Shown here piece after piece: positions 30,617-33,098 of a stretch of DNA of 64,000 nucleotides (positions are counted from its first letter, which is position 1; every line of letters begins with the position of its first letter). Origin of the DNA: Arthrobacter gandavensis (GTDB taxonomy: Bacteria; Actinomycetota; Actinomycetes; Actinomycetales; Micrococcaceae). The stretch lies in contig NZ_VTFU01000003.1 in NCBI RefSeq assembly GCF_009192735.1, positions 248,001 to 312,000 of the forward strand. Reading direction: 5' to 3'. The position numbers were made by a program, and so were the translations under genes. A model generated the notes under the pieces. It was not told the origin of the DNA, did no database searches, and was given only the letters and a program-made list of their open reading frames with translations.

Positions 30617-31066
30617 ATGGCAAAGCTCATTCTGACCCACGAAGTAACCGGTCTCGGCGCTGCCGGCGACGTCATTGAGGTAAAGGACGGTTACGCACGT
30701 AACTTCCTTCTGCCCCGTGGCTTCGCTCTGACCTGGACGAAGGGTGGCGAGAAGCAGGTTGAGTCCATCAAGGCTGCCCGCGCCGCCCGCGAGCACGCTT
30801 CCCTGGAAGATGCTCAGAAGCAGGCTGCTGCACTCTCCGCCAAGCCGGTCACGCTGGCCGTCAAGGCCGGCGAGTCCGGACGCCTCTTCGGCACCGTCAA
30901 GGCCGCCGATGTTGCTGCTGCTGTCGAGGCTGCCGGTCTCGGCACGATCGACAAGCGCAAGGTTGAACTGCCGACGCACATCAAGTCGGTTGGTTCCTTC
31001 CAGGCCAACGTTCGTCTGCACGACGACGTCGCCGCTGTCATCGACCTCAACGTCGTAGCCAGCTAG
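30617..31066 (+). CDS. rplI: Large ribosomal subunit protein bL9
   Basis: The 149-residue protein starts [20 protein letters not shown] and has the N-domain motif [13 protein letters not shown], the long central helix ([16 protein letters not shown]) and the C-domain ending VHLHD-like [11 protein letters not shown]. It binds 23S rRNA domain V. It lies 17 bp after rpsR and is the last gene before a double hairpin terminator. Confidence 0.97.
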
Positions 31067-31233: not shown

Positions 31234-31516
31234 TGTGGATATGGACTGTGGATAGCAGCTGTGGATATCAGCTGTGGAAATCAGCGGAAACCGGGGATAA
31301 CCAGCCGCCCGTATGCGCATTCCGTTCATCTGTCAACCTGCAAGCAGGGGCTGAATGTTGACAAAAAATAGTCTCTATACACAGGTGTGGACGGACGTTT
31401 GCCCTAGTCAGAGCGCTATTAGACTAGAAATAAATACTTTATCCACACCCTTATGCCCAACCTGTGCACAAGACACGCCCAGTTATGCACACCTTCTCCA
31501 CAAGCCCTGTGGATAA
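31234..31516. promoter_or_regulatory. DnaA-box cluster with A+T-rich core upstream of dnaB
   Basis: Sites matching TTWTNCACA exactly lie at 31439-31447 (+), 31483-31491 (+) and 31508-31516 (-). One- or two-mismatch sites lie at 31234-31242 (-), 31247-31255 (-), 31260-31268 (-), 31273-31281 (-), 31375-31383 (+), 31463-31471 (-) and 31494-31502 (+). The first four share one orientation at 13-bp steps. Between the two groups is an unusually A+T-rich stretch (31355-31440). Ten sites within 283 bp is far above chance in high-GC DNA. This is an origin-like or DnaA-titrating layout at dnaB, away from dnaA. Confidence 0.75.
31398..31425 (+). promoter_or_regulatory. Candidate dnaB promoter
   Basis: TAGACT at 31420-31425 is the same -10 box as before rpsF, with TTTGCC 16 bp upstream. 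Transcription would begin near 31432, just before the perfect DnaA box at 31439-31447, and give a leader of about 280 nt. A TTGACA at 31358-31363 has no -10 box at a proper distance. Confidence 0.4.
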
Positions 31517-31715
31517 CTCGTTTGGGGGCGGGGGGTTTCAGGACTACGGTTGCGGTGGAATCCCTTCTAAAACGGCTCCTTGCCGCCGCAGGGACGGTGC
31601 TGTTCCGCACCGGCGGCCGCCGCACGCCAAAATGTCACCGCGGCGGGATAGACCTGAATCAGCTGCCACCTGGCAGGGATCGCACCACAGCAGTACCTTG
31701 GGAAAGGGTTACACA

Positions 31716-33098
31716 GTGTCGCTCACGCATACTGACGCACCGGCTTCGAGCTCCAGCTCCGACTTCGCGCGGACACCGCCGCAGGACTTGGTTGCCGAGC
31801 AGTCAGTCCTGGGCGGCATGATGCTTTCCAAGGACGCCATCGCCGACGTGGTGGAGGTCCTCCGCGGCGTCGACTTCTACCGCCCCGCTCACGAGTCCAT
31901 CTTTGAAGCCATCATCGATCTCTACGGCCGCGGTGAGCCGGCTGACGCCGTCACCATTTCCGACGAGCTGACCAAGCGGGGCGAGATCAGCCGCATTGGC
32001 GGTCCCGCCTACCTCCACACGCTCATCCAATCCGTACCCACGGCCGCAAACGCCGGTTTTTATGCCGAGATTGTCCGTGAACGGGCCGTCCTGCGCCGCT
32101 TGGTGGACGCGGGAACAAAAATCGTGCAACTGGGTTACTCAGGCGACGGCATGGAAGTTGACGACATCGTCAACGCTGCCCAGGCCGAGGTTTTCGCCGT
32201 CGCGGAGCGCCGCACCGCTGAGGACTACGTCCCCCTGAAGGACATCATCGAGGGCACTGTCGATGAAATCGAAGCGGCCCAGCACAAGGGTGAGGGCATG
32301 ACGGGTGTGCCCACCGGATTCTACGAACTTGATGAACTGACGCAGGGGCTCCATCCCGGGCAGATGATCGTCATCGCCGCGCGCCCTGCAGTGGGTAAGT
32401 CGACCTTTGCCCTGGACTTCGCCCGCTCCGCCGCCATCAAGAACAACATGACCACCGTGTTCTTCTCGCTGGAAATGGGCCGCAACGAAATTGCCATGCG
32501 CCTGCTCTCCGCCGAGGCGACCATTGCCCTGCAGGATCTGCGCAAGGGAACCATCAAAGATGAGCAGTGGGGCAAGATTGCCACCACCATGGGCCGGATG
32601 AACGAGGCGCCGCTGTTCATTGACGACAGCCCCAACATGTCCCTGATGGAAATCCGGGCCAAGTGCCGGCGGCTGAAGCAGCGGCATGACCTCAAGCTCG
32701 TGGTCCTCGACTATCTCCAGCTGATGTCCTCCGGCAAAAAAGTGGAATCGCGCCAGCAGGAAGTGTCCGAGTTCTCCCGTGCCCTGAAGCTGCTGGCCAA
32801 GGAACTCGAAGTCCCCGTGATCGCGCTGTCACAGCTGAACCGTGGGTCCGAGCAGAGAACTGACAAGAAACCCATGATTTCTGATCTTCGTGAATCCGGG
32901 TCCATTGAGCAGGACGCCGACATGGTCATCCTGCTCCACCGCGAGGACATCTACGACAAGGAGTCGCCGCGCGCGGGCGAGGCTGACGTGATCGTGGCCA
33001 AGCACCGTAACGGCCCCACCAAAACCATCACCGTGGGCTTCCAGGGCCACTACTCACGTTTCTCCAACATGGCCGTCGAGGGCGGCTCGGGCTTCTAG
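31716..33098 (+). CDS. dnaB: Replicative DNA helicase DnaB
   Basis: The 460-residue hexameric helicase unwinds DNA at the replication fork. An N-terminal primase-interacting domain (about 18-120, LVAEQSVLGGMMLSKDAIAD) is followed by the RecA-like motor with Walker A ARPAVGKST (about 222-230), LEMGRNEIAMRLL, Walker B LVVLDYLQLM and LSQLNRGSEQR. No intein is present, unlike some mycobacterial DnaB. The GTG at 31716 is chosen because homologues begin here and AAAGGG lies upstream; the open frame back to 31464 runs through DnaA boxes and has no protein character. Confidence 0.96.
   Translation: MSLTHTDAPASSSSSDFARTPPQDLVAEQSVLGGMMLSKDAIADVVEVLRGVDFYRPAHESIFEAIIDLYGRGEPADAVTISDELTKRGEISRIGGPAYLHTLIQSVPTAANAGFYAEIVRERAVLRRLVDAGTKIVQLGYSGDGMEVDDIVNAAQAEVFAVAERRTAEDYVPLKDIIEGTVDEIEAAQHKGEGMTGVPTGFYELDELTQGLHPGQMIVIAARPAVGKSTFALDFARSAAIKNNMTTVFFSLEMGRNEIAMRLLSAEATIALQDLRKGTIKDEQWGKIATTMGRMNEAPLFIDDSPNMSLMEIRAKCRRLKQRHDLKLVVLDYLQLMSSGKKVESRQQEVSEFSRALKLLAKELEVPVIALSQLNRGSEQRTDKKPMISDLRESGSIEQDADMVILLHREDIYDKESPRAGEADVIVAKHRNGPTKTITVGFQGHYSRFSNMAVEGGSGF

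What the first reader, a model, noticed from the sequence alone, without database searches (positions are those of the whole stretch)
31234..31516. Origin-like DnaA-box cluster in front of dnaB
The 283-bp region holds three perfect TTWTNCACA boxes and seven near matches. The left four lie in one orientation at 13-bp steps, the right group is mixed, and an A+T-rich core lies between them. This is the architecture of an origin or of a DnaA-titration site such as datA or the Bacillus DnaA-box clusters. Yet it lies at dnaB, and dnaA is not in the window. DnaA could control dnaB, or the locus could be an additional DnaA sink near oriC. Box positions are seen directly; function is inferred.
Basis: partly seen in the sequence, partly recalled or inferred. 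Interest (0 to 1): 0.78.

Follow-up and report, generated by a model that had tools for sequence, protein, structure and literature searches.

The report
DnaA-box array at dnaB promoter
In front of the gene for the replication helicase lies a row of binding sites for the protein that starts DNA replication; the row keeps step with the gene's promoter in many related bacteria, so it most likely lets the initiator set helicase production rather than being a second start site.

Summary
The cluster is real: 3 perfect and 8 one-mismatch TTWTNCACA boxes in 31234-31516, the densest cluster in the 432 kb of its contig examined. dnaA-dnaN, the usual origin, lies about 47 kb away.

Six right-hand boxes sit at fixed distances from a conserved promoter-like sequence (TTGnnn-17-TACGGT) before dnaB in 23 of 25 genus genomes. 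Outside the genus, 127 of 132 class genomes examined have at least one box there, mean 4.3 (recA control 1.1). Candidate -10 elements keep phase with the last box (period 11.5 bp; 0 of 1000 and 0 of 2000 random trials as strong). Twenty genomes of other classes averaged 1.2.

DnaA binding upstream of dnaB is published for two mycobacteria; a DnaA mutant that bound this promoter less also under-expressed dnaB (PMC7738170, passages).

Best reading: a DnaA-responsive control region of dnaB, probably activating, perhaps also a DnaA sink; very unlikely an origin. A new member of a known kind; I found no description of the class-wide promoter-locked geometry in the open-licence papers searched.

The parts
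30617..31066 (+). rplI (ribosomal protein L9), gene upstream
   Evidence: ORF; Pfam Ribosomal_L9_N and _C
31234..31281 (-). left group: four minus-strand DnaA boxes at 31234, 31247, 31260, 31273 (13-bp steps)
   Evidence: mostly not conserved within the genus except the stretch 31260-31269
31356..31364 (-). weak box TTGTCAACA
   Evidence: 1 mismatch to TTRTCCACA, 2 to TTWTNCACA
31375..31394 (.). facing pair: CTATACACA (+, 31375) and CCGTCCACA (-, 31386, 2 mismatches to TTRTCCACA); 31381-31389 invariant in the genus alignment
31405..31454 (.). A+T-richest 50 bp of the gap (66% AT); poorly conserved in the genus from about 31414 to 31438
31439..31447 (+). box A, TTATCCACA, at -106 from the -10 element
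31451..31459 (+). box B, TTATGCCCA, at -94
31463..31471 (-). box C, TTGTGCACA, at -82; overlaps CTGTGCACA on the plus strand at 31462 (2 mismatches)
31483..31491 (+). box D, TTATGCACA, at -62
31494..31502 (+). box E, TTCTCCACA, at -51
31508..31516 (-). box F, TTATCCACA, at -37; ends 5 bp before the -35
31522..31550 (+). candidate dnaB promoter: -35 TTGGGG (31522-31527), 17-bp spacer, -10 TACGGT (31545-31550)
   Evidence: TACGGT with TTGnnn at 17 bp in 23 of 25 genus loci; phasing of TAnnnT with boxes in 28 labels. Transcription start not measured
31700..31708 (+). ribosome-binding-site-like GGGAAAGGG, largely conserved in the genus
31716..33098 (+). dnaB, replicative helicase (GTG start inferred from conservation)
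   Evidence: Pfam DnaB and DnaB_C

Best explanation
It is the DnaA-responsive control region of dnaB. DnaA binds a row of boxes on a grid of about 11 bp (one helical turn) just upstream of the dnaB promoter. The boxes lie upstream of the -35 element rather than over the promoter, as activator sites do. From there DnaA, probably as a cooperative assembly, raises dnaB transcription, tying helicase supply to initiator level and to replication of this origin-near region. Shown here: the boxes, their conservation, and their phase lock with a promoter-like element. Shown by others in mycobacteria: DnaA binding at the equivalent site. Inferred: activation rather than repression, cooperative assembly, and the transcription start.
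For: Outside the genus, 127 of 132 genomes examined (42 labels: 37 families, the own family split by genus) have at least one box within 700 bp upstream of dnaB, 116 of 132 at least two, mean 4.34. Shuffles gave 0.39 and the flank further upstream 0.16 per 700 bp for 94 loci, three genomes among them counted twice. recA upstream gave 1.1 (30 loci). Box-to-box spacing: 12 bp same strand in 17 labels against 4.1 expected, 66 bp in 13 against 4.9, facing 24 bp in 13 against 2.3 and facing 12 bp in 12 against 2.3; these four exceed the largest value seen at any spacing in 300 jitter controls (12 same strand, 10 facing). TAnnnT -10 candidates keep phase with the last box: period 11.5, R 0.764, 0 of 1000 shuffled-sequence and 0 of 2000 label-shift controls as strong. 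Plus-strand boxes relative to the -10 peak at -51, -62, -72/-73, -83/-85, -94/-96 and -106 (77 loci, 28 labels, the window included); the window's boxes A, B, D, E and (minus strand) F fall on those peaks. All six boxes plus TACGGT are in place in 23 of 25 genus loci. Boxes are also upstream of dnaB where rplI is not in the fetched stretch. PMC7738170: DnaA bound upstream of dnaB on M. tuberculosis DNA in vitro and at the homologous region in M. smegmatis in vivo; [quoted passage not shown]
Against: No expression or binding data exist for this organism. The direction of control rests on position and one published mutant, which may act indirectly. Families f6 and f11 and genus g103 of the own family have almost no boxes at dnaB (0 to 3 per genome), so control by DnaA is dispensable. 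Same-strand spacings of 11, 44/45, 55/56 and 65 bp are above their own expectation but not above the largest jitter-control value at any spacing. Box C (-82, minus) is not on a peak shared by three or more labels. The total number of TAnnnT after the last box is only mildly above chance (55 against 44 +/- 6.4); it is their placement that is not random. The recA control is itself above the shuffle level. Ten or more boxes is more than a simple activator needs.
Confidence: 0.62

Rival explanations
1. DnaA sink: the cluster mainly titrates (or inactivates) DnaA soon after the origin fires, like datA or the DnaA-box clusters of Bacillus and Streptomyces; control of dnaB is secondary.
For: Ten to thirteen boxes in 24 of 25 genus loci and 9 in one. 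dnaB lies 3-144 kb from dnaA in 96 of 96 genomes that I picked by eye because both genes were listed on one contig, so the sites double early. In family f11 dnaB sits 268-417 kb from dnaA in four genomes, and the three of these whose dnaB upstream I read have 0, 0 and 1 box. PMC5742627 states that DnaA-box clusters in B. subtilis and S. coelicolor repress untimely initiation (passage).
Against: A pure sink needs no phase lock to a promoter. f6 has dnaB about 30 kb from dnaA in two genomes yet 0 and 1 box there. A better candidate for a pure sink in this genome is the crgA-rhomboid cluster, which lies between convergent genes.
Confidence: 0.22
2. DnaA represses dnaB (or only dampens it), as it does at its own promoter.
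For: DnaA autoregulates dnaA by binding its promoter in several species (PMC8203912, passage). A tandem box pair 12 bp apart, as in boxes A/B, is also found upstream of dnaA in 18 of 21 class loci, there on the minus strand.
Against: The boxes end upstream of the -35 and do not cover the candidate promoter; the DnaA mutant with weaker binding made less, not more, dnaB mRNA (PMC7738170, passage).
Confidence: 0.12
3. A second or alternative replication origin.
For: Many boxes and an A+T-rich stretch in one gap.
Against: The dnaA-dnaN gap 47 kb away has its own box cluster. The A+T-rich core is poorly conserved within the genus while the boxes are fixed. The lowest cumulative GC skew in the 432 kb read is near 212 kb, on the dnaA side, but the signal is weak: a nearly equal low lies at 302 kb, past dnaB.
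Confidence: 0.02
4. Chance or compositional artefact.
For: Near matches are individually common (0.56 per kb on the contig).
Against: Shuffles, the contig scan, the recA control and class-wide conservation.
Confidence: 0.01

Closest known systems
DnaA-bound region upstream of dnaB in mycobacteria (Rv0057/dnaB; PMC7738170, passages read)
   Same: Same gene, same position upstream of dnaB, same class of bacteria; one of five DnaA-bound regions, of which oriC, dnaA upstream and Rv0010c-Rv0011c (Rv0011c is crgA, recalled) also have box clusters at matching places in this genome
   Different: Binding was measured there, not here; box geometry relative to a promoter was not in the passages I saw; the fifth region (Rv3843c-RVnc0040) was not matched here
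DnaA boxes upstream of dnaB in Caulobacter crescentus (Hottes 2005, as cited in PMC8203912 and PMC7738170)
   Same: DnaA boxes predicted upstream of dnaB, dnaB in the DnaA regulon
   Different: Another phylum; array geometry not compared
datA (E. coli) and the DnaA-box clusters of B. subtilis and S. coelicolor
   Same: Dense DnaA boxes outside oriC
   Different: Described as repressing untimely initiation (PMC5742627, passage); promoter phasing not compared here, and the IHF partner of datA not looked for. In genome G175, taken as Streptomyces, the dnaB cluster (2 perfect TTRTCCACA) is separate from a serS-pheA cluster (3 perfect) 85 kb from dnaA, which by my recollection of cosmid names would be the published D78
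oriC of this genome (dnaA-dnaN gap)
   Same: Dense DnaA boxes, A+T-rich stretch
   Different: Lies between dnaA and dnaN, 8 boxes in 300 bp; not at dnaB

Membership tests
DnaA-regulated promoter (dnaB type) | DnaA boxes next to the gene's promoter, more than chance | tested here: met
   the promoter itself is predicted, not mapped
DnaA-regulated promoter (dnaB type) | arrangement conserved in relatives | tested here: met
   23 of 25 genus loci; 132-genome survey with 5 genomes lacking boxes; phasing
DnaA-regulated promoter (dnaB type) | DnaA binds the site | not testable with these tools
   published for two mycobacteria, not for this organism
DnaA-regulated promoter (dnaB type) | dnaB expression responds to DnaA | not testable with these tools
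   one published mutant correlation
Chromosomal origin (oriC) | box cluster with a conserved unwinding stretch | tested here: not met
   A+T-rich stretch present but poorly conserved in 25 genus genomes
Chromosomal origin (oriC) | lies at a GC-skew switch | tested here: inconclusive
   weak skew signal, lows near 212 kb and 302 kb of C6
DnaA titration locus (datA or DBC type) | dense boxes outside oriC, near the origin | tested here: met
DnaA titration locus (datA or DBC type) | loss raises initiation frequency | not testable with these tools
   needs a deletion strain
datA proper | IHF site beside the boxes | not tested
   no search made

The most novel reading that the evidence does not exclude
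Across the class Actinomycetia the dnaB promoter is an ancient DnaA-driven switch: a helical row of DnaA assembled at one-turn spacing acts as an enhancer locked in phase with RNA polymerase, and the same sites double as an early-replicated DnaA sink. Helicase supply and initiator availability would then form one feedback loop.
Probability: 0.35. Interest if true: 0.7.

Novelty: new member of a known kind. Interest (0 to 1): 0.52.

Why it matters
It turns one published observation in mycobacteria into a rule with a precise geometry for much of a class of bacteria, and predicts which boxes matter. It also offers a clean system for asking how an origin-binding protein works as a transcription factor, and whether helicase supply limits initiation in bacteria such as Arthrobacter and Streptomyces.

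Tried and rejected
Origin reading: rejected (GC skew alone is inconclusive). Chance: rejected. Tie to rplI rather than dnaB: rplI was found in the fetched upstream stretch in 44 of 120 loci, 26 of these 44 being rows of the genus; boxes are upstream of dnaB with or without it. The stretches reach about 1.5 kb, so rplI may lie further out.

Identity with the S. coelicolor clusters H69/D24/D78: those names and places are recalled from memory, and the 2006 paper is not held. I therefore do not equate the dnaB cluster with D78.

A promoter at TTGACA (31358-31363) was considered and dropped because it is not conserved in the genus.

Do families without boxes carry a substitute? Perfect TTRTCCACA were scanned in three genomes only. 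G380 (f6) has three within 280 bp at 304.9 kb, about 0.87 Mb from its dnaB; in G360 (f11) and G356 (f6) I saw no such triple away from dnaA. Not followed up.

Limits of the survey: the listings were cut by the tool, so weakly matching families (for example f30 and f43) were not examined; genomes were chosen by hand for spread over families.

Print status: the searches showed no paper describing the class-wide conservation or the promoter phasing. I saw listings, and passages of seven papers. The library holds only open-licence papers.

Full report
What was checked. It exceeds chance: 11 matches to TTATCCACA (up to 1 mismatch) in the window, 7 of them here, against 3.03 expected and at most 7 in 100 shuffles. 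In the 3.72-Mb assembly only three places hold three or more perfect TTWTNCACA within 400 bp, all on contig C6 within 63 kb, and 8 of the genome's 16 perfect TTATCCACA lie in them. In the 432 kb of C6 that I read (of 534 kb), the densest 300-bp stretches are this locus (12), the crgA-rhomboid gap (9), dnaA-dnaN (8) and dnaA upstream (5); no other reaches four.

Where it is. The window lies at C6:248001-312000. dnaA is at C6:231642-233060 and dnaN at 229950-231074, so the cluster is 46 kb from dnaA's start. It sits between rplI and dnaB (Pfam). The nearest named DnaB relatives are Arthrobacter (A. koreensis, 94% identity); the tool warns that the window's own record may be left out of that listing.

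Conservation in the genus. In 25 genomes of the genus (own one included) the 700 bp before dnaB hold 9-13 boxes, mean 10.7 (shuffles 0.9). An alignment of the 25 shows that the right group (about 31440-31525) is the conserved part; most of the left group and of the A+T-rich core are not. In 23 of 25 genomes all six right-hand boxes lie at identical distances from a TACGGT hexamer with TTGnnn 17 bp before it. In the other two (L013, L022) no TAnnnT lies at the fixed distance; the letters printed there suggest a shift by one base. A 26th genus genome (L155) has 9 boxes with the same six-box spacing.

Conservation in the class. From the genomes (246 class genomes; 139 order genomes) I examined 132 outside the genus; the rest were not fetched, the listing was cut, and some families (for example f30, f43) were not examined. 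Of the 132, 127 have at least one box within 700 bp of dnaB, 116 at least two, 104 at least three, 95 at least one perfect; mean 4.34. The 42 labels are 37 families, with the own family split by genus; two labels of the own family are the same genus. For 94 loci (three genomes counted twice) shuffles gave 0.39 and the flank further upstream 0.16 per 700 bp. recA upstream in 30 genomes gave 1.1, itself above shuffle level, with the gene start placed roughly; dnaA upstream 4.3 (21 of 30 loci long enough); dnaA downstream 6.1 (27 of 30). Twenty of the 136 genomes of other classes were read: mean 1.2 against 0.35 in the flank, 7 of 20 with none, the highest 5. The array looks like a feature of the class.

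Geometry. Against a jitter control, box-to-box distances are in excess at 12 bp (17 labels, 4.1 expected) and 66 bp (13, 4.9) on the same strand and at 24 bp (13, 2.3) and 12 bp (12, 2.3) facing; these exceed the largest value at any spacing in 300 trials (12 and 10). Distances of 11, 44/45, 55/56 and 65 bp are above their own expectation but not above that maximum. Candidate -10 elements (TAnnnT) after the last box fall at 28-32, 39-43, 51-54 and 63-65 bp, with none at 24-27, 33-38, 44-50, 55-62 or 66-72 (128 loci, the window included). Their best period is 11.5 bp (R 0.764), reached by 0 of 1000 shuffled-sequence and 0 of 2000 label-shift controls. The pattern TAnnnT, the 15-80-bp range and the 9-14-bp period scan were my choices. 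The total number of TAnnnT is only mildly above chance (55 against 44, s.d. 6.4). Relative to the first such -10, plus-strand boxes peak at -51, -62, -72/-73, -83/-85, -94/-96, -106 and -117, and minus-strand ones at -37/-38 (77 loci, 28 labels). The window's boxes are at -106+, -94+, -82-, -62+, -51+ and -37-; all but -82- are on peaks. None of the six covers the -35 or -10.

Exceptions. Five of 132 genomes have no box: two each of f6 and f11, one of genus g103. In f11 dnaB is 268-417 kb from dnaA in the four genomes checked; the three of them whose upstream I read have 0, 0 and 1 box. In f6 the distance is about 30 kb in two genomes; two further f6 genomes have dnaA near the contig start and dnaB near its end. 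Elsewhere dnaB is 3-144 kb from dnaA in 96 of 96 genomes, median 37 kb; these were picked by eye from cut listings because both genes lay on one contig, their places were copied by hand, and for 11 small genomes taken as circular I used genome sizes that are rounded in nine.

Published binding. PMC7738170 (passages) maps M. tuberculosis DnaA in vitro and M. [quoted passage not shown] Rv0011c is crgA (recalled). This genome has clusters at four matching places: dnaA-dnaN, dnaA upstream, crgA-rhomboid and dnaB. PMC8203912 (passage) reports predicted DnaA boxes upstream of dnaB in Caulobacter. PMC5742627 (passage) describes sink-type clusters in B. subtilis and S. coelicolor.

Reading. DnaA binding is very likely. 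The lock to the dnaB promoter argues for transcription control. The placement upstream of the -35, with the published mutant, argues for activation. A sink function may coexist. An origin is very unlikely. The kind is known; the class-wide, phase-locked geometry was not seen in the literature searched (open-licence papers only).

Noticed in passing
L001 (G000:C6:216746-217126): A second strong DnaA-box cluster lies between the convergent genes crgA and a rhomboid protease, about 14 kb from the dnaA-dnaN cluster; genome G175 (taken as Streptomyces) has one beside crgA too, and the Rv0010c-Rv0011c region is DnaA-bound in mycobacteria. Lying between convergent genes, it is the better candidate for a DnaA sink.
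   Followed up: partly
L125-L154, dnaA upstream regions: A tandem pair of minus-strand boxes 12 bp apart sits upstream of dnaA in 18 of 21 class loci long enough to test.
   Followed up: partly
L230 (G175:C1:3714693-3714999): Genome G175 has a further cluster of three perfect TTRTCCACA between serS and pheA, 85 kb from dnaA. I did not locate serS-pheA in the window's genome.
   Followed up: partly
DnaB open frames of 800-1500 aa: Many class genomes have dnaB open frames far longer than the window's 460 aa, some matching in separate parts, which suggests inteins.
   Followed up: no
window 31462-31471: Box C is a near-palindrome (TTGTGCACA overlapping CTGTGCACA on the other strand); TTGTGCACA recurs 24 bp after a plus-strand box in several families.
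   Followed up: partly
window 31473-31479: ACACGCC between boxes C and D is invariant in the 25-genome genus alignment but is not a DnaA box; its role is unknown.
   Followed up: no
family labels f6 and f11: These families nearly lack the dnaB array; f11 also has dnaB 268-417 kb from dnaA in four genomes.
   Followed up: partly
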